This document shows positions 16,830 to 40,283 of a DNA stretch of 53,438 nt, piece by piece. Below the pieces are notes generated by a model. The model made no database searches, was not told where the DNA came from, and saw only the letters and a list, made by a program, of their open reading frames with translations. Location of the stretch: the NCBI GenBank assembly GCA_019744995.1, contig JAIETQ010000024.1, positions 1 to 53,438 on the forward strand, read 5' to 3'. This DNA comes from Amoebophilaceae bacterium. GTDB taxonomy: Bacteria; Bacteroidota; Bacteroidia; Cytophagales; Amoebophilaceae. Position numbers and translations under genes: made by a program. Within the stretch, counting starts at the first letter, position 1, and every line of letters starts with the position of its first letter.

Positions 16830-18075
16830 TCATGCTAGGTTCGGTCTAGCAGATTTAAAGTTTATTTTAGTCCATCCATAGTCAATAATAGCCGCTATAA
16901 AATCAAAAGGTGTATACCCCTGTAAGGCACATTGGTGAAAAATACAGGTAGCCGGTGTCAGGGCAGGCAGTGCATTGACTTCAATAATCCAGACCTCTAC
17001 CTGTTTATCAGGGGATATTTTTACAAAAGCATCGATTCGAGCATATCCTTGCAGGTTGAGTATTTTTGCCGCTCGTTCTAGTTTTTTTTTTTACCTGATC
17101 ACCGATCTGTTTAGCGCTATGGTTATCGGGGTCAAATCTTGCAGGGGTTATGTTATGCCCTTCGCCAGCTAAAAATTTTTCTGCTAAGGAAAGTATGGCG
17201 TCGGCTGCAAGGACTTCTGTAGGGTCAAAGATTTCATATACTATGGCTTTATGAGGAGCTAAATGAGTCAGTAAGCCGGTGGTAATTTCTAAACAAGAGC
17301 CATCATGTGCTATAAAATCCTCTAGTAAAAATGGATCTTTTCGAGGGAGCCAGCTCTCCACATAAGCTGCTAATTGCGCTTGGTTGGTAAGCTTGGTTAC
17401 TCCATTACTACAGCCGTCATCTACTGGTTTGGCAATCATCGGGTAGGCTAGTTGGGCTTCAATGGCATCGATATAAGCAGTAGGATCTTTTTGCCATGCT
17501 TGAGGGGAAACTTTGAATTGTTTAGCCACAGGAAAGCCGTGTTGGGCTAAATATTGATTGGTGGCATATTTATCGATGGTCAAAGCAGTGGCTGCTATGC
17601 CAGATCCATTGTAGGGTATATCGTAATCTTCTAGTATGGCTTGTAGGGTTCCATCTTCGCCAGGTCTACCATGTAGGGCTAAGAAGAGGAAATCTATACG
17701 CTCTTTTAAGGTGGCATAGGTAACCTCTTCGGGGGTAAAGATAGCTTCTTGGGAACGTTTATGTAACTTACTAGCCTTTAGCCTGATTTCTACTAAGGGG
17801 GCTTGTGAGGCAGCAAATTTAATAGGATCTAGCAATAGATCATGGAGATCATCGGCATTGTCTTTTAATAAAAGGGCAATAGGCAGGGTGAAAATACGAT
17901 GTTGTGTTATGGAGCCAGATAAAAAAAGGGGGAGGGGGGTATATTGTGTTGAGGCGGCTAATTTGCTATAGACATTGCGTCCACTTTCTAGTGATATGTG
18001 GCGTTCTGCTGAAAATCCGCCCATAAGCACGCCTATTCTTTTACGCATCGTAGCTAATCTGATATCTTTACCCAT
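16830..18075 (-). pseudogene. ddl: D-alanine--D-alanine ligase split by a +1 frameshift in an A11 tract
   Basis: 17008-18075 encodes the ATP-grasp N-terminal part (GVLMGGFSAERHISLESG, LHGRPGEDGTLQAILE). After A11 at 17082-17092 the other frame continues LERAAKILNLQGYARIDAFVKISPDKQVEVWIIEVNALPALTPATCIFHQ... to a stop at 16830-16832. Confidence 0.9.
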
Positions 18076-18100
18076 AAGTTGTTATTATTACTTGTATTTC

Positions 18101-18131
18101 TGTAAACGGCCTCCCCGGCAGGCCGTTTACA
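18101..18131. terminator. GC-rich stem-loop between ftsH and ddl
   Basis: tgtaaacggcct-ccccggc-aggccgtttaca, perfect 12-bp arms. Confidence 0.6.
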
Positions 18132-18184
18132 GTATGGTATTTTTTTAGCTAGGCCCTGCTTAATCCTCAACAGCTGTAGTAGCC

Positions 18185-27100: not shown

Positions 27101-27504
27101 TGGCACTATACACCAGGCTTAATGAAATTAAAGCTATAGAGCAGCTGACTGATTTTCGAGCAGAATTATTGGATCGATTTGGTCCTTTGCCGCTTGCTGC
27201 CGAGGCTTTACTAGCCATTGTTCCTTTGCGTTGGGAGGCACAACGGATAGGTTTTCAAAAACTTTCTTTTAAAAATAAGGTGTTGAGTTGCCACCTAGGG
27301 GCTGATTTTCAAAAAAATAGTCCAGCCATGTGGCGGGCGGTGTTACAATATATAGAGGATTATCCTGCTTCTTGTCGTTTAAAACAGGTAGGCAATGAGC
27401 TTATATGGGTTATTACAGGGCAGGTTGATGATATAAAGCAGGTGAGGGGGGTGTTAAATGCCTTAACGCGACTGGAACAAAAAGCGCCTAAAAAAATTGT
27501 ATAA
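24187..27504 (+). CDS. mfd: Transcription-repair coupling factor
   Basis: CarD-like GDYVVHSDYGIGRFSG, CGDVGFGKTEIAIRAAFKA, LIIDEEQKFGV, TATPIPRTLHFSLMGARDLS. Last ~15 codons lie in palindromic repeat copy 1. Confidence 0.97.
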   Translation: MYFTLEILCSKELINLYKQTTTIAKLSHYVKQQANKTPFCLKGITGSLDGLLVTALQQQCNQLQLVVLADQENAAAFYGDLLALSPSQSILLLPGTAEGETYLAESAKIIQDKRAEIVHALTDHKPIAIVVTHLAALMEQVVDPSLAKKLRLKLELNQTLTLSTLIDYLQQNQFVKVDFVYSQGQFAIRGGIVDLYSVAASLPYRIALWGNQVESIRVFDPKSQKSLKAVKKLTILPHTTAEGSTALSYISFAHCLPVGSVVWFKDKSNALESLQGGQSLLDELSPFHQIELATGSADPSIHSPATGSAEDHIIHYASAPQPYFQKKFDVLADDLDKKQHDGYTTFITATAIGQFSRLQAVLEDKSAHFTPLLVGLREGYVDHTAKIACYTDHQLFNRYYKHQPTKPEPPTLLTQQANPLQIGDYVVHSDYGIGRFSGLHTLNINGCKQEVIRLIYKNNDTVFVHVNELYKITTYSSKDATPPVMNKLGTTAWQNKKNGVKKQIKDIATELITLYAARKQAVGFAFGKDTPLDAALAASFYYEDTPDQATAIAAVKEDMERPYPMDRLICGDVGFGKTEIAIRAAFKAAIQGKQVAVLVPTTILALQHYNSFTSRLADLPVHVSYLNRFKTKQEIQKTLADTAAGKINILIGTHKLLTDAVKFKELGLLIIDEEQKFGVSAKEKLKKLRVHVDTLTLTATPIPRTLHFSLMGARDLSILVTPPANRRPVKTKLTSFDLSFIKEAVTYEIARGGQVFFVHNSVSTIQAMAKSLSEVLPTIRICVAHGQMAGPALEQKMLQFIAGHYDVLVSTSIIESGIDIANANTIIINHSHLLGLADLHQMRGRVGRSNAQAFCYLLIPSYEQLTHEAQLRLSAVEEFSALGDGFKLAMRDLDIRGAGDLLGASQSGFIADVGFEVYCKLLEEVVEEVKYNDFKELFSQKSSTKSWHDCSIETDCEAFLPVEYVQNSAHRMALYTRLNEIKAIEQLTDFRAELLDRFGPLPLAAEALLAIVPLRWEAQRIGFQKLSFKNKVLSCHLGADFQKNSPAMWRAVLQYIEDYPASCRLKQVGNELIWVITGQVDDIKQVRGVLNALTRLEQKAPKKIV

Positions 27505-27610
27505 AAATCTGATTAGAGCCAGCTATTGAGCTCCGCAGGAGCGACCTCAGCTGGCTCAAGATTTTGATACAAATTTTGGCTCCTTTTTGTTCTGGAGCGA
27601 TAGGGCATTT
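27457..27610. repeat. Long palindromic element, copy 1 (overlaps the mfd 3' end)
   Basis: aatgcc..acgcgactggaacaaaaagcgcctaaaaaaatt... [42-bp core 27516-27557] ...acaaattttggctcctttttgttctggagcgatagggcatt; arms complementary. Confidence 0.85.
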
Positions 27611-27642
27611 TTTTTATCTGGATGCTTAACAGCCATCAAATG

Positions 27643-27752
27643 GGCACAAAGCGCCAGAGAGTAAGGCGCCAAGGCGCGCAGAATCCGAGCATACTATTTG
27701 TATGTGAGGATTTAAGCACCGCAGGCAACGAAACTATCTGGATGCTTTGTGC
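27643..27752. repeat. Second, unrelated imperfect palindrome overlapping the uvrB 3' end
   Basis: ggcacaaagcgccagagag...aatccgagcatac-tattt-gtatgtgaggatt...ctatctggatgctttgtgcc folds back over ~52 bp per arm. Confidence 0.65.
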
Positions 27753-29740
27753 CAATTTACATCTTGTTTGCGTAACCTTTCTAGTATTTCCTTTAACCGA
27801 TCTGCTTCTAAAAATTGCAAAGCCGCTGCTGCCTCGTACATCTCTTTTTCAATAGCCGCAATACGTTTTTCAACCGTTTCTTCCTTTCCATAAGCCATCG
27901 TTATATCATTTACCCATGCCTCCTCATGGGCACTATAGTTACCCGTATAGAGAGATGGTTGGTGAGGTTTAGTTAAGGCAGTAGGCGTAATAGCATGCTG
28001 TCGATTATATTCCATTTGTAACGCACGTCGGCGTCTGGTTTCCTGGATCGCCTGTTCCATAGAAGCCGTTATCTTATCGGCATACATAATGACCCGACCC
28101 GCTGTATGTCGTGCCACCCGGCCAATGGTCTGAATAAGCGAACGCGTATTTCTTAAAAACCCCTCTTTATCTGCATCTAAGATAAGCATTAAAGAAACCT
28201 GAGGTAAATCTAACCCTTCTCTCAATAAATTAACCCCCACCAGCACATCAAACTTACCCGCCCGCAGGTCATTAAGAATAGCCACCCGATCTAAGGTTTT
28301 AACTTCCGAATGTATATACCTACAAGCGATACCTGCTTGTAACAAATAAGCCGTAAGTTCCTCTGCCATCCTTTTGGTTAAGGTAGTAATAAGGACCTTT
28401 TCTCCTCTACTTACCACTTGATGGATAGCCTCTAAAATGTCTCTGATTTGATTTTTTGTAGGTTTGACCTCTATTTCTGGGTCTAGCAATCCTGTCGGGC
28501 GTATGACTTGTTCTACTACCAACCCACCAGCGGTTGTGAGTTCATAATCAGCCGGGGTAGCGCTTACAAAGATCACCTGATGGACCAACTGTTCAAACTC
28601 CTCAAAGTTTAGGGGGCGGTTGTCTATAGCAGCAGGCAATCGAAAACCATAATTGACCAAATTTGTTTTCCGTGCATGGTCTCCTCCCCACATGGCTCGG
28701 AATTGTGGTAGGGTCACATGGCTTTCATCGATAACCATGAGATAATCTTTGGGAAAATAGTCTAACAGACAAAAAGGACGTTCTCCAGCAGCTCGACCAT
28801 CGATATAGCGGGAGTAATTTTCAATACCAGCACAATAACCCAATTCCCGTAACATTTCTATGTCGAGTTCGGTGCGTTCTTTTAATCGCTTGGCTTCTTG
28901 ATATTTACCCTCTCCTTCAAAGTGGGCAAGCTGTTTGCCCAGATCGAGTTGCATGGCTTTTATTACCTTATGCAAAAGATCAGGATGCATGATAAAAAGA
29001 TTGGCAGGAAAAATAGTGGTTGCTGTAACCGCTTCCATCTGTTTGCCTGACGTAGGGTTGATGCGGTAGATGGCCTCTATTTCATCTCCCCAAAAGATAA
29101 AGCGGTAACCATAGTTGGCATAGGGTAACAATAGGTCAATAGTGTCACCCATGACACGAAATTGTCCTCGCTTGCATTCGCTGTCATTACGGCTATAGAG
29201 CATAGCTACAAAACGGCTTAAGAGGTCGTTACGAGATAGCTTCATAGCTACCTGAAAGGTATGGGTGTTTCTTTTGAATTCTTCCGGTTTGCCGAGTCCA
29301 TAGATGCAAGAAACTGAGGCTACGACAATAACATCTCTGCGGCCACTTACTAAAGCGGCAATGGTCTTAAGCCGTAACTTTTCTAGTTCTTCATTAATGG
29401 CCAGTTCTTTCTCTATATAGACATTACTAGCGGGTAAATAGGCCTCGGGCTGATAATAGTCATAGTAAGAAACAAAATATTCTACTGCATGGGTGGGGAA
29501 AAATCCACTTAATTCACTATATAATTGTGCCGCCAATGTTTTATTATGGCTAATGACCAAGGTAGGTCGTTGAGTTTGAGCAATGGTATTGGCGATGGTA
29601 AATGTTTTGCCAGAACCTGTAACGCCTAAGAGTACTTGATATTTGGCGCCCTGGTTGATATTTTCTACCAAGGCTGAGATGGCTTTTGGTTGATCTCCAG
29701 CAGGTTTGTAGGAAGATAGGAGTGAAAAGGTCATCATCAA
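27734..29740 (-). CDS. uvrB: UvrABC system protein B
   Basis: LLGVTGSGKTFTIAN, YYDYYQPEAYLP, TLTKRMAEELTAYLL, VLVGVNLLREGLDLPQVSLMLILDADKEGFLR. Confidence 0.98.
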   Translation of the reverse strand: MMMTFSLLSSYKPAGDQPKAISALVENINQGAKYQVLLGVTGSGKTFTIANTIAQTQRPTLVISHNKTLAAQLYSELSGFFPTHAVEYFVSYYDYYQPEAYLPASNVYIEKELAINEELEKLRLKTIAALVSGRRDVIVVASVSCIYGLGKPEEFKRNTHTFQVAMKLSRNDLLSRFVAMLYSRNDSECKRGQFRVMGDTIDLLLPYANYGYRFIFWGDEIEAIYRINPTSGKQMEAVTATTIFPANLFIMHPDLLHKVIKAMQLDLGKQLAHFEGEGKYQEAKRLKERTELDIEMLRELGYCAGIENYSRYIDGRAAGERPFCLLDYFPKDYLMVIDESHVTLPQFRAMWGGDHARKTNLVNYGFRLPAAIDNRPLNFEEFEQLVHQVIFVSATPADYELTTAGGLVVEQVIRPTGLLDPEIEVKPTKNQIRDILEAIHQVVSRGEKVLITTLTKRMAEELTAYLLQAGIACRYIHSEVKTLDRVAILNDLRAGKFDVLVGVNLLREGLDLPQVSLMLILDADKEGFLRNTRSLIQTIGRVARHTAGRVIMYADKITASMEQAIQETRRRRALQMEYNRQHAITPTALTKPHQPSLYTGNYSAHEEAWVNDITMAYGKEETVEKRIAAIEKEMYEAAAALQFLEADRLKEILERLRKQDVNWHKASR

Positions 29741-29876
29741 TTTAGGGCATTATCGATTTGGTATGGCAAAGCCAAGGCTTTGATCAGTAGGCTTTTATCT
29801 ACAAATACATCACTGTTAACTAGTAGGTTATGAAATTCATCGCAATGGAGTATGCATTACCTATATTTATTAATCT

Positions 29877-30422
29877 TTACTCTACCTTTAGTAATTCAAA
29901 GATTCTGGAAACTGGTAATTTGGTTATTCTAGCAATTTCTTCAATAGAATTACCATTAACTAGCATCATTTTTAGTAATTTAGCTTCACCCTTAACTTCA
30001 CCTATTTTGATACCTTCAAATTTACCCTTAGCTTCACCTTCTTCTATATATTTTCGTGCAACTGTTCTCATAATTTTATCTTTTTCTTCTTCTGATAAAT
30101 ATTTATTTAGCACCTGAGCTAAATCCGCTTGCTTTTCTTGAGGCAGCTTAGCGTCAGTGTAATATAAAAAATATTTTACATAAATAAATCCTTTTTCCTT
30201 ATCTAGGAAGATAACGTGTTGAAACATTTCTAAAAAACTATCCCAAAGTTTTATCATATCTCGTTGATGGATATGTTTCATCATAAACTCTAACATGCCG
30301 AGATGTTTCTTAAGTCTAATCTCATCATTAGACATAGGGGGGAGGATGTCGCTCACATAATTCGGCGGGTTTTTCACTAAATAAATAATTAAATAAAAAA
30401 TGCCTTTACGCGACTGGAACAA
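29877..30422 (-). pseudogene. C-terminal part of an Rpn/PD-(D/E)XK transposase-associated nuclease, N-terminus missing
   Basis: EKQADLAQVLNKYLSEEEKDKIMRTVARKYIEEGEAKGKFEGIKIGEVKGEAKLLKMML; ORF opens at a TTG inside palindromic repeat copy 2 with no nuclease core. Confidence 0.6.
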
Positions 30423-30536
30423 AAAGCGCCTAAAAAAATTTGTAAAAAAATCTGATCAGAGCCAGCTATTGAGCTCCGCAGGAGCGACCTCAGCTGGCTC
30501 AGGATTTTGATACAAATTTCGGCGCCATTGCATAAT
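30399..30536. repeat. Long palindromic element, copy 2 (right end truncated after ggcgcc)
   Basis: Same 42-bp core at 30459-30500 and left arm as copy 1; the ctttttgttctggagcg arm end is missing. Confidence 0.85.
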
Positions 30537-31199
30537 TACCAATTTCTCTTTATATTATTCAAGGGTATTCACTTTCATTGGCAGCAAGATTTTCGTCTGA
30601 TTGAAAGTTTAAACAAAAAAAGTTGCATTATTAAGGAGGAGTGTGTATATTCTTTTATGGGATAATACTTATTAAACGATTGGATCTATCCAAGTTGTTC
30701 ATTACCTCATCAAACAGTCTTTAGTGACAACTTCATAGGATAGACTAAGAAGTTTTGCTAGTCTCCTAAGGTATATTACAAAGCGTTTTAGCTGGCCTTT
30801 TTTGTACACATACAGCGTGTAAGTCGGAAGTATTGCATAATGATTGGTTTTCCAAAGGGTTAACCACCTAGTTATAAGCGTAATTTAATAGAGGCATTGA
30901 AGCAATGAAAAAATAAGTTTAAACTGAGTAAGGTAATGTTTAGCACAATTAAAAAAATATAGAAAAAATGATATAGCTTTAACATAGTTTATAATCTACC
31001 CTAAAACAGGGTAGGCCCACCATGGCTGTGGGGAATAATGATTTAGCAGGTTATGTGAACCTATTTTTTATATAAACAATTTTAACATATAGATGATTTA
31101 AGGTATAACTTTTACACTATTTTAAGGAAAGTTATAATTATCCATTATGATTACCCAATTTAAGCAAAAATTTTCAAACTTTAAAATTAATATTTTATT

Positions 31200-31472
31200 A
31201 TGCCAGGATTAACAACAGCAGACGGTGCATTTCAAGTAATTTTAGGACAGATTAACAAAGCTAGCACTTTAGTTTTTACAATTGTAGCTATATGTACGGG
31301 AATTATGGTTGCCAATAAATTTATCAACAGTAGAGACAAAAAAGAGGCGGTTCATTATGCGTTATGGTGGGTAGTAGGGATTTTCTTTTTCTATTCCATT
31401 CATGGTATAGTTAGTCACATGAGGAATGCCTATGGAATAAAAGACGCCGAGTTACAGGAGTTGTACAAGTAA
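31200..31472 (+). CDS. traE: Conjugation protein TraE (DUF4134-like), small membrane protein
   Basis: TLVFTIVAICTGIMVANKFINSRDKKEAVHYALWWVVGIFF; position before TraF/TraG. Confidence 0.75.
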   Translation: MPGLTTADGAFQVILGQINKASTLVFTIVAICTGIMVANKFINSRDKKEAVHYALWWVVGIFFFYSIHGIVSHMRNAYGIKDAELQELYK

Positions 31473-31474
31473 TC

Positions 31475-31801
31475 ATGACAGACCTTATCGTAAACAAGCG
31501 CATTGAAAAAAGGGGGATGATCGGTCCTCTCTATATATACGAAGCGTTATTTTTGGCCATTTTAACGATGGCCTACTTTTTTGTGCTGGTGGTCTTGAAT
31601 TTTATCTTTCATGTGAGCAAGCTTTGGGTATTAACCTGTCCGGCTTTGTTTTTTATGGTCTTATTTTTTCTTGTTTTCTTTAGAAAAAGTAGCAACCCCA
31701 CCTATATATGCTCTCGGTTTGCTTTTTACCGGCAGCCCAAACACCTAGATACTAAATATGGAACCCTATGTCACAAGCTAACACAAAAAGAGACTACATA
31801 G
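31475..31801 (+). CDS. traF: Conjugation protein TraF (DUF4133-like)
   Basis: 108 aa, N-terminal IVNKRIEKRGMIGPLYIYEALF and two TM helices, ends inside the traG start. Confidence 0.7.
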   Translation: MTDLIVNKRIEKRGMIGPLYIYEALFLAILTMAYFFVLVVLNFIFHVSKLWVLTCPALFFMVLFFLVFFRKSSNPTYICSRFAFYRQPKHLDTKYGTLCHKLTQKETT

Positions 31802-34209
31802 AAGAGTTGATTCCCATTCATGAGTTAAGCGAGGAGTTGATCATTTTAGCTGATGGCGCGGTAGCTATTGGCTATAAACTGCATTTATGGCCAGATGAAG
31901 GAGTAGATGAGCAGACCTATAGGAGTCATATAGACTTGCTGTCCAAAACCATTCGAAAGTTTCCAGCTGGTACAGTCGTACAACAAATAGATGCCTATAC
32001 CCCCACCGCTTTTGAAGTGGATCCATCTTATAAATTTGTTAATTTCTTTCACAAAAAGCAGTTTCATTATTACAAAGACCATACCTTTTTGGCGCATACT
32101 ACCTATCTATTTATTATTTGTAGCCCCTTTACCACCGTTATAGATCCACACCTTACGATTTTTTCTACCCGCAATCGAGGGATCTTAGATCCCTTTAAAG
32201 AGTTATCCACTACCATTGATAAGGTAAGAAAGTGTGGCAACGAATATCTAATGTCCTTGCCCGAACGATGGTCTGCTACACAGATGGAAGCAGCTGATCA
32301 TTTATCGCTGATCCATGGTTGGTTAAATCTAGACTTTAGCGGTGGTGTATCGGGTTTAGAACATGGTATCACCAATACCAAAGGGGCTTTTAAGGTAGGC
32401 AATAAGCATTGTACCCTGGTTTCTATGCATAGCCAGTCTGGAGAACCCAACTATTGTGGCAAAAACAACCTAGGTAGTAGCGGCGGGGTAACCGTCCCTT
32501 TTACTTGGAATATGAGCCATTATATGAACTTTCCTCATATAACCATTCAAGCCTTACAAGTCTACAGCACAGAAGATTTTTTACAAAGCCGCACCAAAGA
32601 ATTGCAATGGACCCAAGGGATGAAAAACAGCGACCGTGGCCTGCGCAATGTCAACCAAGACCTAGGGGAGCTGATTGCCTTTGAAGAGGCTATGCGTCAA
32701 CAAGAAGAGATTATCGTCTACCTCAACTATTTGGTTTTGGTCTATGATGCCGATGCTAGGCGGCTAGGTAGACAGGTAGAGGTGGTCAAAAAAGAGTTTA
32801 AGAAACTAGACATGTTGCCTTTTGTGGAAGATTATGACGCCGCTAACCTGTTTTTTGCATCCATGCCAGGTTGTGCCGCTCAGCTCTATCGAGGCCAACC
32901 TATGGCGCTTAAAACCGCTTTGTGTTACTTTAACAGTTGCACCCCCATGCAAGGAGATAAAACCGGTATTTTGTTGGCCAATAGGCAAGAAGTGCCCATC
33001 TATTATGATCCGTTTAACCTAAGTTTAGACAACCAAAATGCCTTTATCTTTGGCCCCTCAGGTTCCGGTAAATCATTTTTTAATGGCAAGATGATTAAAG
33101 ATAGGTTTCAAGCGGGTCATATTGTTATTGTTATTGATAGTGGTGGAACCTATAGAAGACTTTTTGAGGTGTTAGGGGGTAAGTATATTGAATACAGCTC
33201 AGAGACCCCGCTTTATTTAAATCCCTTTTTAATTAAGGCCAATCGCCAGGGTTGCTTTAAGCCAGATCTGAATAAAATAACTTTTTTGGTCCAATTTATA
33301 GGGAAAATATGGAAGGGAGATTTAAATACACATCCTATGGATGAGGTAGAAAAAGCCCTGCTAGCCAAATGGATTGTAGCCTATTATGCTTCATTAACAA
33401 GTGAAAGTGTGCCCTGTCTTACGCAATTTTATAATTTTTTAAAAAAAATGTTAGAAGATCCGGATGATCCAGAGGTACATAAGCTGATCGAACAAGATCT
33501 TTTTAGTTTTTATGATTTCTTTATCGTGCTAGAGCCCTTTGCTTATGGGATGTATAGAGACCACTTTAATTCAGATAAGAAAGAACATTTAGGGGACCAT
33601 AGATTGGTTTGCTTTGAGTTAGAGGCTATAAAAAATAATCCAAAGCTCTATCCGCTGGTGGTGCAGGTGTTGTTTGATTTTGCTTTTGAAATGGTTGCTA
33701 ATAATCCAGATGCCATCAAATTTATAGACATTGAAGAGGGATGGACCATGTTGAATGATTATTCAGAAGAAAACATTGAAGCCTTTTTTAGGAAAGGAAG
33801 AAAGACCAAAACCTCTATCCGCATCATTACCCAAAATATAGATGAAATCAAGGGATCCAAAATAGCAGGCGCTATGAAAAACAATGCCTCTAACTTTATC
33901 TTACTCTATAATGACAAACAATCTACCAGAGAGGAAATTGGGGATTTTTTAGGTATGAATGCATTTGATATGGAAAAATACAGCAGCTTAAGGAGGAAAA
34001 ATGGAAATAATGGCTATAGAGAGGTGTTTATTAAAGCGATGAGTGAGGCTCAGGTATATGTAGTGCATACCTCCCTGTGGGACCATGCACTCTTAACCTC
34101 TAGGCCCGATGAAAGGAATAGGATCACCCATCTAATTCAAGAAAAAGGGGATCATCTGTTAGGTATTGCCGGTTGGGTATCGGAACAAATGCAGTTTGCT
34201 ATTAAATAA
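31768..34209 (+). CDS. traG: TraG-family (VirB4-like) conjugation ATPase
   Basis: 813 aa, Walker A FGPSGSGKSFFNGKM, Walker B-like IKFIDIEEGW, late motif SIRIITQNIDEIKGS. Confidence 0.92.
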   Translation: MSQANTKRDYIEELIPIHELSEELIILADGAVAIGYKLHLWPDEGVDEQTYRSHIDLLSKTIRKFPAGTVVQQIDAYTPTAFEVDPSYKFVNFFHKKQFHYYKDHTFLAHTTYLFIICSPFTTVIDPHLTIFSTRNRGILDPFKELSTTIDKVRKCGNEYLMSLPERWSATQMEAADHLSLIHGWLNLDFSGGVSGLEHGITNTKGAFKVGNKHCTLVSMHSQSGEPNYCGKNNLGSSGGVTVPFTWNMSHYMNFPHITIQALQVYSTEDFLQSRTKELQWTQGMKNSDRGLRNVNQDLGELIAFEEAMRQQEEIIVYLNYLVLVYDADARRLGRQVEVVKKEFKKLDMLPFVEDYDAANLFFASMPGCAAQLYRGQPMALKTALCYFNSCTPMQGDKTGILLANRQEVPIYYDPFNLSLDNQNAFIFGPSGSGKSFFNGKMIKDRFQAGHIVIVIDSGGTYRRLFEVLGGKYIEYSSETPLYLNPFLIKANRQGCFKPDLNKITFLVQFIGKIWKGDLNTHPMDEVEKALLAKWIVAYYASLTSESVPCLTQFYNFLKKMLEDPDDPEVHKLIEQDLFSFYDFFIVLEPFAYGMYRDHFNSDKKEHLGDHRLVCFELEAIKNNPKLYPLVVQVLFDFAFEMVANNPDAIKFIDIEEGWTMLNDYSEENIEAFFRKGRKTKTSIRIITQNIDEIKGSKIAGAMKNNASNFILLYNDKQSTREEIGDFLGMNAFDMEKYSSLRRKNGNNGYREVFIKAMSEAQVYVVHTSLWDHALLTSRPDERNRITHLIQEKGDHLLGIAGWVSEQMQFAIK

Positions 34210-34217
34210 CGGAATAC

Positions 34218-35039
34218 ATGCGCTATGCTTCGGTTTATTATGTAAAAGATGGGATCTGGGGGTTTATGCAAGATATATGTGACACAAACTCTATCATTGC
34301 CCTTCTTTTAATTCCTACTTTTTTGGGTCTTTACTTTTGCTTCTATTATGCCAAAGAAGGATTACAAGGTCAAAGTATCCAGTCGTTGGTAATCAATATT
34401 TTATCAAAAGGAATGTGTCTTATTGGTTTTATTTGTTATTTTGAAGAGATCATGGGCTTATTGGACCGCATGGTAGTGGGCATCATGGATCTATGGAAGA
34501 TAAATGAGCAAATAAGTGTCTATTTAACAGAAACAAAAGATGCATTAACGGAAGCAAGCAGTGTATGGTATACCTATGGGATCGACATGATACCCTCTCA
34601 TTACCATGCGATAAAAAAAGTATCTTTGGGGGTAGTTCAACTGTTTGTGCGGGGTGTCCTGCATGCCTTTAGGGGGTATCTATTGGTTTTTTCTACCCAA
34701 TTGGGGCCGCTGGCGGTTGCTATGGCTGCGCTTCCTGGTCGTTATGCTGGGGTAGCTGCCCATTGGTTTAGTTTACAAATTTCTTTTTTTATTTGGGGAT
34801 TAACACTTTCTTTAATGGATGTTATGTTGGCCAAATTAAAATTTTTAACTATAATTATAGACAACCCTTCTATGATGGAGTTAGCGGCTTTGGCAGCCTT
34901 GATGTTGATGTATGTGGTGGTTTCAACAGCAACAGCGCTATACATTGGAGGGGTAGTGGGTAGACCTATTTTTAATGCTACCGGTAATTTTTTTACCAAT
35001 CAACTTATATCAGGAGGCAATAAGCTGTATAAATTTTAA
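34218..35039 (+). CDS. traJ: TraJ-like (VirB6-type) polytopic membrane protein
   Basis: Multiple TM helices; AMAALPGRYAGVAAHWFSLQISFFIWGLTLSLMDVM; immediately after traG. Confidence 0.65.
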   Translation: MRYASVYYVKDGIWGFMQDICDTNSIIALLLIPTFLGLYFCFYYAKEGLQGQSIQSLVINILSKGMCLIGFICYFEEIMGLLDRMVVGIMDLWKINEQISVYLTETKDALTEASSVWYTYGIDMIPSHYHAIKKVSLGVVQLFVRGVLHAFRGYLLVFSTQLGPLAVAMAALPGRYAGVAAHWFSLQISFFIWGLTLSLMDVMLAKLKFLTIIIDNPSMMELAALAALMLMYVVVSTATALYIGGVVGRPIFNATGNFFTNQLISGGNKLYKF

Positions 35040-35080
35040 ACCTGTGCATAACCCGCATCTAATGATCAAAACCTATCACC

Positions 35081-35740
35081 ATGTCTAGCGTAGATTCTTT
35101 TAATAGTAGAAAGATAGGGATACTTATACAGCGTATTCAATACCTGTTTATTATGGTTACCATAACCTTAACCGGGTTGGTTTGCTTTTTTGCTTTTAAA
35201 TGGTTTAGTGTTTCTAATCAGGATGCGGTTTATTTTGTAACCCCAGAAGGGACCTATTGCAGTAAAAAAAGAAGCTACGCCATTCGTTGTGAGGAGTTTG
35301 AAATAGAAAACTTTGCCATTCAGTTTATGAAGCATGCTTTCGAAAATAATGAATATACCTATGAAGATCATTTGAATGCAGCACTAAGCGTTATGGATAG
35401 AAAAAGCGGATTGCTCTTAAAGAGTAAGTTTAATGAAGATAATCTTTTTGACCTATATAGGAATTACAATGGGATTTCTACCTTATCTATAGATAGTTTT
35501 CAGGCTAATATGGAAGATTATCCCTATGAAGTGGTCATGTTTTATACCGTTAAAATGGATTTTCTAGGCTTAGAAGCTAAAAAGATAGTAGGAGAGGGGG
35601 GTAAAAAAGTTTCGGGTGGTGTCTATTTTAAGCTTAAGACTACCCATAGAAGTAAAGAGAACCCCTATGGTTTGTGTATTACACATTTTAGTTTCGTAGA
35701 TTATAAACATAAAGATAATGATGGTAAAGGTAGTAAGTAG
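35081..35740 (+). CDS. traK: TraK-like (VirB8-type) protein
   Basis: 219 aa, short cytoplasmic N-terminus, one TM helix, periplasmic domain; position between TraJ and TraN. Confidence 0.65.
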   Translation: MSSVDSFNSRKIGILIQRIQYLFIMVTITLTGLVCFFAFKWFSVSNQDAVYFVTPEGTYCSKKRSYAIRCEEFEIENFAIQFMKHAFENNEYTYEDHLNAALSVMDRKSGLLLKSKFNEDNLFDLYRNYNGISTLSIDSFQANMEDYPYEVVMFYTVKMDFLGLEAKKIVGEGGKKVSGGVYFKLKTTHRSKENPYGLCITHFSFVDYKHKDNDGKGSK

Positions 35741-36512
35741 GTTGGCTTTTTTATTTCTATTTGGTTTTAAGACTAGTGTGGTATCTAATGATTTATTGAT
35801 GCCCGCCTCTTTAAAAGAGGTAAAAGTGGCTCATCAGTATATCAGCACCTTGCTATTTGATGAAGAGGTTAAAGAAGTATTGCTTGCCAGCAAGGAATAT
35901 GTTGCCAATGTGCATAAAAATATTATTTTACTCCGAGCCATAAAATTCAATACCGCACCTACTTCTATAGTAGTGCTTTTTAAAAGCGGTAAGCAAATTT
36001 TTAATGGTCTTTTATCTACCACCCAGGAACCCCAAGAGGTCTATGATTATAGAACAGGGCAAGCCGTTGGCGAAGAAGCTCCCCAACAAGATCCAAGCCT
36101 AGCTAAAAAGATTCATTATTTGAAAAAGCTACCTCAAGCCTATTGTTGTAAAGGCATCCATACAAAATATTATAGCATTGCATTGACCAATGTCTTTCAT
36201 GATGAGCGGTATACCTATTTAAAAGTGCATATAGAAAATAAGACTGCCTTAAAATTTGATCTTTTTGAAGCTTCTTTTCAACATATTAACAACAAAAAAA
36301 GTAGAATTTTGGTAGATCCTGTCTATCAATTAGCGGATTGTTCTGTTCCAGCTTATGGAGCTAAAACCCTTGTTTATGTTTTACCACGGTATACTACGCA
36401 TAAATCGGGTAGGTTGTTGGTCTCCTTTGCTGAGCAATCGGGTGCTCGTGTGTTTAATTTATCTATTCCTGGACGTATCATTTTGAAAGCTAGGTATTAT
36501 GCAAACCAATAA
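35718..36512 (+). CDS. traN: TraN-like (DUF4138, VirB9-type) exported protein
   Basis: Signal peptide, VHKNIILLRAIKFNTAPTSIVVLFKSGKQIFNGLL, DERYTYLKVHIENKTALKFDL. Confidence 0.65.
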   Translation: MMVKVVSRLAFLFLFGFKTSVVSNDLLMPASLKEVKVAHQYISTLLFDEEVKEVLLASKEYVANVHKNIILLRAIKFNTAPTSIVVLFKSGKQIFNGLLSTTQEPQEVYDYRTGQAVGEEAPQQDPSLAKKIHYLKKLPQAYCCKGIHTKYYSIALTNVFHDERYTYLKVHIENKTALKFDLFEASFQHINNKKSRILVDPVYQLADCSVPAYGAKTLVYVLPRYTTHKSGRLLVSFAEQSGARVFNLSIPGRIILKARYYANQ

Positions 36513-37386
36513 GGTATATATCATCTTTGGCGTAATAGCGGCATTTTTAGCTGGGGTTAAGCTATTTTTAGGGGGTGGTGTAAGCAACAAGAACCATTCG
36601 GTTGGTATGGAAATTCCTAATTTTAAGGAAGAAAAAAAACAGGTACGCAAAAGAAATTTGTTGAAAGAATATGATCGATCCATGGATGATACCTCCCATG
36701 CATTGAGCAAAAAAACGACTAAGAAAACTTTTTCTGCTTTTTCCCATATGTTTCAAGAGAAACCTCAGCCAGAAGAAGCTAAAAAAGATAGCGTGCCACT
36801 ACCTCCGCTGGTTAAAAAGATAGCAGCCGTTGTGCAACCTGTTGCTGTTACAGAGGAAGCTGAGGAATCGGTTTGGTTTTTTTCTTATAAAGACAAAGAA
36901 GATAGCCAGGAAGATAGGCCTCGTCGGGGTGCAACTGCTACCCAAGAGCTTACTTCTAAATTTTATGAGGCTTTTTTAGATGAAGAGCAAAAAGTTACCC
37001 ATGGCAGCTCTATGGTATTAAAACTAAAAGAAAATTGTACCCTACGGGGTGTGGAGTTAAAGGCTGGAACGGTACTCTATGGACAGGTTAGCTTTATGCA
37101 AAATAGAATTTTAGTGACCATTAATGTGGCAAAATACCGGGGTAAGACTAGGCCCGTACAGCTCTGTTGTTATGATACCGATTTTTTACTGGGGCTATTC
37201 TGCAAAGGCGTACATCCCGTAATCGAATCACAAGGAAATAAATTGTTGGGTAAAATGGGTGAATTCAGTGATTCTAAAGCGATTCAAGCCGCTGAAAAAG
37301 TAGCCGCTGAGGTAATCCAAGGGGTGACTAAAACCAAGACCTTTAAGTTGTTACAAGGCAGAAGCTGTTATGTATGTGAACGGTAA
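36499..37386 (+). CDS. traM: TraM-like (VirB10-type) protein
   Basis: N-terminal TM, proline/charge-rich linker, C-terminal LKENCTLRGVELKAGTVLYGQVSFMQNRILVTI. Confidence 0.7.
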   Translation: MQTNKVYIIFGVIAAFLAGVKLFLGGGVSNKNHSVGMEIPNFKEEKKQVRKRNLLKEYDRSMDDTSHALSKKTTKKTFSAFSHMFQEKPQPEEAKKDSVPLPPLVKKIAAVVQPVAVTEEAEESVWFFSYKDKEDSQEDRPRRGATATQELTSKFYEAFLDEEQKVTHGSSMVLKLKENCTLRGVELKAGTVLYGQVSFMQNRILVTINVAKYRGKTRPVQLCCYDTDFLLGLFCKGVHPVIESQGNKLLGKMGEFSDSKAIQAAEKVAAEVIQGVTKTKTFKLLQGRSCYVCER

Positions 37387-37414
37387 AGCAACGATTAAAC
37401 AAGTATAAATAATT

Positions 37415-38281
37415 ATGGTAAAATTTAAAAAAGTGTATGGGATAATTGGGGTGTTCTGTATAGGTAGCATACTATTAATGCATCCTAAGGTGTTTGGGGG
37501 GCGACATAAAATAAACTTTAAAATAAAAAAACCTATTGCACCGAGTGAACCATCAGGATCTGTAGTAAAAACGTGTAAGTGGGTTAAGAATCAGGTTACC
37601 TCAGCTTTTGATCCTGAGACACCAAAGCAGGTGTTACAGCAGGTTAGGAATGCTATCCTTAAATATAATCAAAAGGCTAAAATTAAGGATGAGGCTATCA
37701 AGAAATTTGATAAACAATTGGTTCACAATATGCGTAAGGTTAGTGGTGGAAGTCTAAGCTTCAATAACTCGCGTGATAAGCTTATTAAGCATTTAGACAG
37801 GTTTACAAACCATTTATCTGATTTAAAATCAATTGCCACTGCTGATCAAAAAAAGATTTCGAAGTTATTAGAGACGCGCATGGAATTGTGTTATAAATCA
37901 GATAAAGAGGTAACAGGTAGAAAAATTGAGTTGGTTAAATATTATAGAGAAAAAGCTGAGGAACTAGATAAATACAATAAATTGTTAAAAGCACAATTCT
38001 CCAATTATTTTGGCGCAGATGGTAAGAGGGGGCAATTTATAGGTGGTGATGACGCTGCTGAACCAGCGCAAACGCTAACAGCTAGCCAGCAGTTACAATT
38101 ATATAATTTGATAGAAAAAAATGAGATCAAAGCCATGAAACTAAAAGAAAAAACGATAAAGCTATACCAAGAGGTTTGTACCATGACCGAAATAGAAAAG
38201 CAAGATATAGCCGCACAGCAAGATAAGAGGGCTTTTATCGATATGATTGACCAAGAGCTCGCAGTGAGAGCCCCGCACTAA
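37415..38281 (+). CDS. Exported alpha-helical protein at the end of the tra cluster, unknown
   Basis: Signal-like YGIIGVFCIGSILLMHPKVFGG followed by helical, charged sequence. Confidence 0.6.
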   Translation: MVKFKKVYGIIGVFCIGSILLMHPKVFGGRHKINFKIKKPIAPSEPSGSVVKTCKWVKNQVTSAFDPETPKQVLQQVRNAILKYNQKAKIKDEAIKKFDKQLVHNMRKVSGGSLSFNNSRDKLIKHLDRFTNHLSDLKSIATADQKKISKLLETRMELCYKSDKEVTGRKIELVKYYREKAEELDKYNKLLKAQFSNYFGADGKRGQFIGGDDAAEPAQTLTASQQLQLYNLIEKNEIKAMKLKEKTIKLYQEVCTMTEIEKQDIAAQQDKRAFIDMIDQELAVRAPH

Positions 38282-39951
38282 TTTTTCAATTTCTCCAGCT
38301 GTGCTTCGATAACCTCATCTTCAATTTTTTCAAATAACAATAGAGGAGGCGCTAATCGATCGCCCGCCTGTAATAAATGTTTGACCGATACCCCATCCCA
38401 GTCCATTGTTTTCAAGCCTAAGAGGAGCGCCATCTTATCGCTTGTATAGGGTAAGAAAGGTTTTATCAACAAGGCTATAGTAGCGATAAGCTGTAGCGTA
38501 ACATGCAACACACTTCCAGCTACTGCTGGATTGGTTTTAAGTGCAGCCCATGGTTTTTGTTCGGCTAAATATTTATTGCCTAAAGTGGCATAGTGCATAC
38601 AGGATTGAAGCCCCTCCTTAAATCTAAATTGTTCGATAGCGCTACCTACTTTCTCAAAAGCCAGTTGTAGGGTAGCAAATAGTTGTTCGTCGCTGGCATG
38701 GGGCGTGGTGTAAGCAGGCATTTTGCCATCAAAATGTTGGTGTACCAAGCTGACCGTTCTATGGACTAGATTACCTAAATTGGCTACCAGTTCGTTGTTG
38801 TTTTTAGCTTGAAAATCTTTCCAGGTAAAGTCACTATCCTTCTGTTCGGGAGCAATCGAACAAAGCACATAACGCAGGACATCTTGTTTGTCTTTGAAGG
38901 TTGCTACATATTCATGTAGCCAAATGGCATGGTTTTTAGAGGTAGAAAATTTGCTACCTTCTAGGTTTAAAAATTCATTGGCGACGATCTCTTTAGGTAA
39001 AATAAATGCTCCATGGGCTTTAAGCATCACAGGAAAGATGATGGCATGAAATACAATATTGTCTTTTCCAAGAAAATGAACCAAATCAGTGGTTGGGTCT
39101 TGCCAAAAAGGCTCCCAAGCGGTCTGTTGTTGAGCGGCCCATTCTTTGGTGGCGCTGATATACCCAATGGGGGCATCAAACCAAACATATAGTACTTTAT
39201 CTTTACCTTCTGGTAAGGGAACGGTCACTCCCCATGTGAGATCTCTGGTTATGGCTCGTTTTTGTAGGCCATGGGTTAGCCAACTTTTGCATTGGCCATA
39301 GACGTTGGTTTTAGCGGGTTTATTTTCTGCTAGGATCCATCTTTTGAGCCACGCTTCATATTGGTCTAAGGGTAAAAACCAATGGCTGGTGGGTTGTAAG
39401 ATGGGTCGGTGGCCACTAATTGAGGAGGTTGGATTGATAAGCTCTTCGGGACTGAGTGTGGTGCCACAACTTTCGCATTGGTCTCCATAGGCATTGGGGT
39501 TGTTGCAGTGAGGGCAGCTTCCTTTAAGGTATCGGTCTGCTAGGAATTGTTTGTGGATGGGGTCGTAGTATTGCTGGGTTTCATGGACTTCAAGGAGTGA
39601 TTTTTGGTGTAGGGTGGTGAAAAAATCAGCGGCGGTTTTATGGTGGGTAGGAGAGGAGGTTCTTGCAAAGATATCATAACTGATGGCAAGGTCTTCTAAT
39701 GCTTTTTTGTTTAAAGCATGGTATTTATCTACTATTGCTTGAGGGGTGGCGTTTTCTTGTTGTGCGCGAATGGTAATAGGTACGCCGTGTTCATCTGAAC
39801 CACTGATAAAGAGGACGGTGGCTTTTTTTTGTCTCCAGTAGCGCGCATAAATATCGGCTGGGAGATGTGCTCCGGCTACATGGCCTAGGTGAATGGGGCC
39901 ATTGGCATAGGGCAGTGCAGCGGTAATGGTATATCTTTTGGTTGGGTTCAT
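38278..39951 (-). CDS. metG: Methionyl-tRNA synthetase (short form)
   Basis: ALPYANGPIHLGHVAGAHLPADIYARY, FISGSDEHGVPI, zinc cysteines CPHCNNPNAYGDQCESC, KFSTSKNHAIW. Confidence 0.96.
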   Translation of the reverse strand: MNPTKRYTITAALPYANGPIHLGHVAGAHLPADIYARYWRQKKATVLFISGSDEHGVPITIRAQQENATPQAIVDKYHALNKKALEDLAISYDIFARTSSPTHHKTAADFFTTLHQKSLLEVHETQQYYDPIHKQFLADRYLKGSCPHCNNPNAYGDQCESCGTTLSPEELINPTSSISGHRPILQPTSHWFLPLDQYEAWLKRWILAENKPAKTNVYGQCKSWLTHGLQKRAITRDLTWGVTVPLPEGKDKVLYVWFDAPIGYISATKEWAAQQQTAWEPFWQDPTTDLVHFLGKDNIVFHAIIFPVMLKAHGAFILPKEIVANEFLNLEGSKFSTSKNHAIWLHEYVATFKDKQDVLRYVLCSIAPEQKDSDFTWKDFQAKNNNELVANLGNLVHRTVSLVHQHFDGKMPAYTTPHASDEQLFATLQLAFEKVGSAIEQFRFKEGLQSCMHYATLGNKYLAEQKPWAALKTNPAVAGSVLHVTLQLIATIALLIKPFLPYTSDKMALLLGLKTMDWDGVSVKHLLQAGDRLAPPLLLFEKIEDEVIEAQLEKLKN

Positions 39952-40000
39952 GGTTTTTGTAAAATTTATTTTTATATACTATTTTATATCTCCTTTCTGC

Positions 40001-40156
40001 AATGCCTTTACGCGACTGGAGCAAAAAGCGCCTAAAAAAATTTGTAAGAAAATCTGATCAGAGCCAGCTATTGAGCTCCGCAGGAGCGACCTCAGCTGGC
40101 TCAGGATTTTCTTACAAATTTCGGCGCCTTTTTGTTCTGGAGCGATAGAGTTTTTT
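40001..40156. repeat. Long palindromic element, copy 3 (best preserved)
   Basis: Core 40061-40102 identical to copies 1 and 2; arms aaatttgtaagaaaatct / gattttcttacaaattt are perfectly complementary. Confidence 0.88.
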
Positions 40157-40158
40157 TG

Positions 40159-40188
40159 CATACTTTTTTTGCGGTCAAAAAAAGTATG
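40159..40188. terminator. Perfect stem-loop upstream of metG and downstream of leuS
   Basis: catacttttttt-gcggtc-aaaaaaagtatg. Confidence 0.6.
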
Positions 40189-40283
40189 AGGCCTCCCCGG
40201 CGAGGGGGTTTACAGTGATACTAACAATAAATGTACACATACTTTAATCGTTCAAGAACAAAAAGTACCGTAATGGCATTTTT

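What the first reader, a model, noticed from the sequence alone, without database searches (positions are those of the whole stretch)
27457..40156. Three-copy long-palindrome family with an invariant 42-bp nested-hairpin core
27457-27610, 30399-30536 and 40001-40156 share gagccagctattgagctccgcaggagcgacctcagctggctc with no differences (27516, 30459, 40061). The core folds as gagccagct / (gctcc-gca-ggagc) / agctggctc, and the flanking arms (acgcgactggaacaaaaagcgcc ... ggcgcctttttgttctggagcg) extend it to nearly the whole element. In copy 3 both arms carry the variant gtaagaaaatc/gattttcttac, while the right arms of copies 1 and 2 carry gattttgatac, so copy 3 restores perfect pairing; this hints at selection on the fold or arm-to-arm conversion. 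No ORF explains it. It resembles REP/MITE-like or Rickettsia palindromic elements in general form, but I do not recognise this sequence.
Basis: partly seen in the sequence, partly recalled or inferred. Interest (0 to 1): 0.75.

Follow-up and report, generated by a model that had tools for sequence, protein, structure and literature searches.

The report
Structured MITE family in Cardinium symbionts
The three palindromes are worn copies of a short, gene-less jumping element that is scattered through this bacterium's genome and, with very different letters but the same folded shape, through most related Cardinium-type genomes, which suggests that the shape itself is being kept.

Summary
In detail: three exact 42-bp cores, and copy 3 does have restored pairing. 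The own genome holds about 15 copies of this long hairpin (P), plus deleted or contig-edge copies. In complete copies P sits inside a 316-323 bp element: terminal inverted repeat (TIR) CATATCTTTACCCATAAGT, A-tract, P, T-tract, a second hairpin (Q), a GC hairpin (R), TIR. Three of five TIR-bounded copies have exact 9-10 bp target-site duplications (TSDs). There is no gene inside, so it is a MITE-like non-autonomous transposon. The window copies have lost their ends. BLAST finds no relatives, but a covariance model finds the same bulged hairpin followed by Q in other genomes of the genus, with different letters, TIR GTATCTGTTCA and exact 8-bp TSDs. A model built without this genome hits only copies 1 and 3 in the window. 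Pairing is kept through many two-sided changes. Some of that is arm-to-arm copying, but the asymmetric bulges persist across species, which conversion alone would erase. The mobilising transposase is not identified; IS982, parent of the only MITE described from Cardinium, has a different TIR. New variant of a known kind.

The parts
27457..27465 (+). Copy 1: remnant of the left A-module (AATGCC...), TIR missing
   Evidence: similarity to the complete element begins here
27466..27605 (+). Copy 1: long bulged hairpin P
   Evidence: CM R1 E=3e-36; CM R2, built without this genome, E=2e-5; fold z -7.1
27516..27557 (+). Copy 1: invariant 42-bp core
27466..27504 (+). Left arm of copy 1 read as the last 12 codons (TRLEQKAPKKIV) and stop of mfd
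   Evidence: in six relatives Mfd ends with an unrelated short tail
30382..30407 (+). Copy 2: remnant of the left A-module
30408..30529 (+). Copy 2: hairpin P, right outer arm lost
30459..30500 (+). Copy 2: invariant 42-bp core
40001..40009 (+). Copy 3: remnant of the left A-module
40010..40150 (+). Copy 3: hairpin P, both arms with the same AG variant
40061..40102 (+). Copy 3: invariant 42-bp core
40151..40157 (+). Copy 3: T-tract between P and Q
   Evidence: same place in relatives
40159..40188 (+). Copy 3: hairpin Q (CATACTTTTTTTG-CGGT-CAAAAAAAGTATG)
40189..40211 (+). Copy 3: GC-rich hairpin R
40212..40245 (+). Copy 3: start of the variable right part; the right TIR is missing
18061..18132 (+). 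Element fragment elsewhere in the window: one TIR (1 mismatch) and the R palindrome, no P

Best explanation
The three palindromes are decayed copies of a non-autonomous DNA transposon (MITE-like) with an unusually structured interior. Intact copies are 316-323 bp in this genome, carry 19-bp terminal inverted repeats and leave 9-10 bp target-site duplications, so a transposase acting in trans cuts at the TIRs (shown: TIRs and TSDs; inferred: the enzyme, which was not found). Between the TIRs lies a long bulged hairpin P flanked by an A-tract and a T-tract, then hairpins Q and R. The same plan (TIR, P, T-tract, Q, TIR) with different letters occurs in most other genomes of the genus. P is therefore a conserved structural module of an old element family, not a chance palindrome. 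Within a genome, arm sequence is copied from one arm to the other, and internal deletions across the hairpin are common. Both are expected of a palindrome that becomes single-stranded during replication, and copy 3's perfect arms are best read this way. The retained asymmetric bulges suggest that the folded form, as single-stranded DNA or RNA, also does something for the element. The most likely role is to make insertions between genes tolerable or to help transposition (inferred).
For: Copies: 14 full-length and 1 truncated place plus fragments. TIR: 12 forward and 12 reverse sites against 3 and 1 for the reversed pattern. TSDs here: AGTGCCCTT, ACCATGGAT, ATACTAGTTT, in five TIR-bounded elements; a fourth has an imperfect 9-mer, read by eye. 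Relative G004: 142 TIR ends against 3 in the control and five exact 8-bp TSDs. Cross-genus hits with R1. Reciprocal model R2 finds only copies 1 and 3 in the window, other own copies, G002 and a relic in G007. Q follows P in G000-G005. Covariation: 97.6% of cells paired and 9 pairs with two-sided changes in 14 own copies; in 20 sequences from 5 genomes, 14 of 18 pairs and 104 cells against 39 in shuffles. Arm exchange. Intergenic position. mfd site empty in five relatives.
Against: No transposase with this TIR was found: TIR-bounded ~890-bp stretches in G004 carry none, and IS982 and IS256 ends do not match convincingly. None of the window copies retains a TIR. TSD length varies (8 in G004, 9-10 here). 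TIR letters differ between this genome and its relatives, so homology of the ends is not shown. Element bounds in G002 are unclear. Covariation counts are inflated by shared descent and by arm conversion.
Confidence: 0.85

Rival explanations
1. P is a functional RNA or terminator module (a dispersed bidirectional terminator or small RNA) retained by the host; mobility is incidental.
For: Fold and bulges kept across the genus; P flanked by an A-tract and a T-tract on both strands; almost always between genes.
Against: Simple terminator scans find none at copies 1 and 3. No Rfam family matches. Copy positions differ between species: the mfd site is filled independently in G001 and G000 and empty in five others. 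Copies decay and delete internally.
Confidence: 0.2
2. Pairing is kept only by mutation, that is template switching or gene conversion between the arms of a palindrome; there is no selection on the fold.
For: Left and right arms show the same variant pool in both directions. L015's left arm is the reverse complement of a right arm, outer end included, and L013's left arm is that of another subfamily's right arm. Perfect coreless palindromes exist (L157:636-849).
Against: The asymmetric internal loops beside the core (ATTGA/GACCTC here; the larger 5' loop in G002 and G004) stay asymmetric in all lineages, and most own copies keep mismatched loops.
Confidence: 0.3
3. REP/RAYT-type palindromes mobilised by a Y1 (HUH) transposase.
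For: Hairpins, intergenic, many copies.
Against: TIRs with 8-10 bp target duplications are a DDE-type signature (established knowledge), not that of Y1 enzymes. The element is far larger than a REP (20-40 bp in PMC3733652).
Confidence: 0.03
4. Ends of an annotated IS, or a MITE of the IS982 element ISCca4 like MITECca01.
For: An IS982-derived MITE is known from Cardinium cOegib (PMC9769881).
Against: IS982 in this genome has TIR ACGTCAACTCTGGATTA, and in G003 AACCTGAACTCTGGATTA; the element's TIR is CATATCTTTACCCATAAGT. blastn finds no copy in other genus genomes.
Confidence: 0.03
5. One recent local duplication.
For: Three copies within 13 kb.
Against: Copies on many contigs, both strands, mostly 83-94% identity, different flanks.
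Confidence: 0.01

Closest known systems
MITECca01/MITECca02 of Cardinium cOegib (PMC9769881)
   Same: Short gene-less TIR-bounded repeat in the same genus, intergenic, many copies
   Different: Derived from IS982 ISCca4; the IS982 TIR measured in this genome differs. No structured interior was described there, and it was reported absent from other Cardinium strains, whereas the present fold is genus-wide
ERIC and Correia elements
   Same: About 100-300 bp, palindromic, intergenic, TIR-bounded, able to fold in RNA
   Different: TIRs and TSDs differ; here two or three hairpins stand in fixed order, and the interior fold outlives sequence similarity between species. Compared from a review (PMC10969869) and own knowledge, not by sequence here
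QMITE2 of Coxiella (PMC10969869)
   Same: Truncated copies that lose TIRs and DRs and then look like REPs, as the window copies do
   Different: Unrelated organism; QMITE2 carries GTAG-type REPs, not seen here
Rickettsia palindromic elements
   Same: About 150-bp palindromes of an intracellular bacterium; copy 1 does alter a protein's end
   Different: RPEs insert in frame inside genes; here 0 of 22 copies lies inside an ORF of 150 aa or more

Membership tests
MITE (non-autonomous DDE-type element) | Terminal inverted repeats | tested here: met
   24 sites against 4 in the control; five TIR-bounded elements
MITE (non-autonomous DDE-type element) | Target-site duplications | tested here: met
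   9-10 bp here; five exact 8-bp TSDs in G004
MITE (non-autonomous DDE-type element) | Short, without transposase gene, many copies | tested here: met
   316-323 bp complete; no large ORF inside; at least 15 places
MITE (non-autonomous DDE-type element) | Parental IS with the same TIR | tested here: inconclusive
   Not found among PF01609, PF00872 and PF13612 elements nor by TIR spacing; the draft has 89 contigs
MITECca01 (ISCca4/IS982-derived) | IS982-type TIR | tested here: not met
REP/RAYT repeat | 20-40 bp hairpin with GTAG/CGTC-type tag | tested here: not met
   Hairpin of about 140 nt within a larger TIR element; size definition from PMC3733652
Rickettsia palindromic element | Frequent in-frame insertion within genes | tested here: not met
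   0 of 22 copies inside an ORF of 150 aa or more
Known structured RNA (Rfam) | Match to a family | tested here: not met
Intrinsic terminator | Simple GC stem with U tail | tested here: not met
   0 found at copies 1 and 3; the scan does not cover long bulged stems

The most novel reading that the evidence does not exclude
A class of non-autonomous transposons in which the folded interior (bulged hairpin P followed by Q) is the conserved, functional part, while the TIRs differ between lineages. P would be a structure read by a protein, or an RNA needed for movement or for host tolerance, possibly old enough to predate the split of Cardinium and the genus of G011 (g5): G011 has Q, R and similar outer arms, but only sub-threshold model hits at P.
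Probability: 0.3. Interest if true: 0.7.

Novelty: new variant of a known kind. Interest (0 to 1): 0.52.

Why it matters
BLAST-based repeat annotation misses this family, because only the fold is shared between species, although it is abundant in at least one genome (about 140 TIR ends in G004). It offers a natural test of whether the interior of a MITE can be under structural selection, and of how much palindrome covariation is arm-to-arm copying, a confounder for covariation-based RNA discovery. It also coincides with contig breaks in this symbiont draft.

Tried and rejected
The exact core pattern in about 85,000 species gave two unrelated chance-level hits, with own-genome records possibly left out. 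blastn on relatives found nothing in the genus; only the covariance model did. Candidate parents: IS982 TIR differs. IS256 end resembles the left end weakly (p=0.0035 in 18 comparisons, not significant). An IS5-type fragment joined to a left end in L039 is a chimera, not a parent. ~890-bp TIR pairs in G004 hold no transposase. G006 was sampled as the possible MITECca01 genome; no such repeat and no P were found in 200 kb. Two Cardinium plasmid records (p_B whole, the first 50 kb of pCher) carry no copy (the one R1 hit, E 0.019, lies in a coding gene). Rfam, plasmid and phage searches were empty. Absence is not reliable, because only 150 candidates per genome were scored: G003 and G007 were 'absent' there, but stretch-by-stretch scans found them.

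Full report
Observation. The 42-bp core is present exactly three times in the window (27516, 30459, 40061) and never in shuffles. Copies 1 and 3 fold as one long hairpin with a five-base bulge on one side and six on the other of the inner stem; copy 2 has lost its outer right arm.

Copy number and real extent. The own genome (1.10 Mb, 89 contigs) has 14 full-length and one truncated place with covariance model R1, plus deleted and contig-edge pieces. Three contigs begin or end inside the palindrome, so this is a lower bound. Aligning the flanks showed that similarity continues on both sides: an A-rich module on the left; on the right a T-tract, hairpin Q (CATACTTTTTTTG-N4-CAAAAAAAGTATG) and GC hairpin R. 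Complete copies are closed by CATATCTTTACCCATAAGT in inverted orientation. This sequence occurs 12 times on each strand of the genome against 3 and 1 for the reversed control; among 21 family genomes, matches with at most one mismatch occur only here.

Transposition. Five TIR-bounded elements were found (124-323 bp). Three have exact flanking repeats: AGTGCCCTT, ACCATGGAT, ATACTAGTTT. A fourth (C22, 323 bp) has a 7-of-9 repeat, read by eye. Internal deletions that remove part or all of P are frequent (L022, L024, L034, L032). None of 22 copies examined lies inside an ORF of 150 aa or more. At copy 1 the left arm of P is read through as the last 12 codons and stop of mfd. The region downstream of mfd is free of the element in five relatives, and in a sixth (G001) holds an independent, TIR-bearing copy in the opposite order.

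Genus-wide family. blastn found nothing in seven other genomes of the genus. R1 found homologues in G001, G002, G004 and G005, later also G003. In each genome G000-G005, P is followed by a T-tract and a Q-type hairpin. In G004 the element is about 257-296 bp, bounded by GTATCTGTTCA: 142 ends against 3 in the control, and five exact 8-bp target duplications with no shorter matches. G005 has about 11 P copies or fragments per 100 kb sampled. Model R2, built only from G001, G003, G004 and G005, finds copies 1 and 3 as the only hits in the window (E 2e-5, 8e-5), other own-genome copies, G002 (E 8e-7) and a relic in G007 (E 4e-5). G006 gave nothing convincing in 200 kb (best R2 hit E 0.76). In G011, of another genus, hairpins Q and R are clearly shared (alignment beyond all 1,000 shuffles) and a long hairpin with similar outer arms precedes them. 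The arms alone are not clearly significant, and R2 is only suggestive (E 0.08-0.10).

Why the pairing is kept. In 14 own copies 97.6% of cells pair, and 9 of 43 pairs have two-sided changes. In 20 sequences from five genomes, 14 of 18 inner pairs have two-sided changes: 104 cells against 39 in shuffles, and at most 32 when the partner is slid. Part of this is arm exchange. Left and right arms share the same variants; copy 3 has the left-type AG on both sides and L011 the right-type TC on both; L015's left arm is a reverse-complemented right arm. Conversion alone, however, should also make the bulges symmetrical, and they remain asymmetric in every lineage. I therefore think both processes act, and I cannot apportion them.

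Which family. It meets the MITE criteria that could be tested (TIR, TSD, size, no gene, copies); the parent IS remains unknown. The known Cardinium MITE comes from an IS982 element (PMC9769881). IS982 in this genome and in G003 has another TIR. IS256 (open frames of 412-413 aa in G000 and G004) shows only weak end similarity. The genus is identified as Cardinium or very near it, because the TraG-type protein in the window is closest to Cardinium plasmid proteins, at 46-47% identity, and because G007's chromosome length equals that of cEper1 as I remember it. A review describes MITEs that lose their ends and then resemble REPs (PMC10969869), which is what the window copies look like.

Limits. 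Genome-wide scans scored only 150 candidates per genome. The own genome is a draft. Cross-species alignment of the outer arms is poor, so only the inner helices were counted. No transcription data were available, and the function of P is inferred.

Noticed in passing
window 27638-27758; also L062, L066, L070: A second palindromic repeat family (AAATGGGCACAAAGC ... GCTTTGTGCCAATTT), next to copy 1 and elsewhere joined to hairpin Q.
   Followed up: partly
L041, L057 and L061 (G000 contigs C54, C12, C1): In three places a sequence with the group II intron 5' end (GTGTGCCAGG...) begins immediately beside hairpin Q; Rfam group II intron domains confirmed in L061 only. Suggests Q is an intron target.
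   Followed up: partly
L144-L148 (genome G005): Another palindromic repeat of about 150 bp (TTCCCTAGACCTTCTGCAAAACCTATTG...) at roughly 24 copies per 100 kb sampled.
   Followed up: no
window 29877-30422; L015, L031, L034: Several element copies sit beside what look like genes of the Rpn/PF04754 'putative transposase' type; at copy 2 only the C-terminal part of such a gene remains. Association not tested.
   Followed up: no
L039 (G000 contig C29): An IS5-type transposase fragment is fused directly to the left end of the element.
   Followed up: partly
L013, L017, L018 (G000): A second P subfamily with different outer arms (AAAGAAAAGGC/GCCTTTTCTTTTGG); L013 is a hybrid of the two subfamilies.
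   Followed up: partly
window 31200-38281: A conjugation-type gene cluster (TraG-like ATPase and neighbours) on a chromosomal-looking contig, closest to Cardinium plasmid genes.
   Followed up: no
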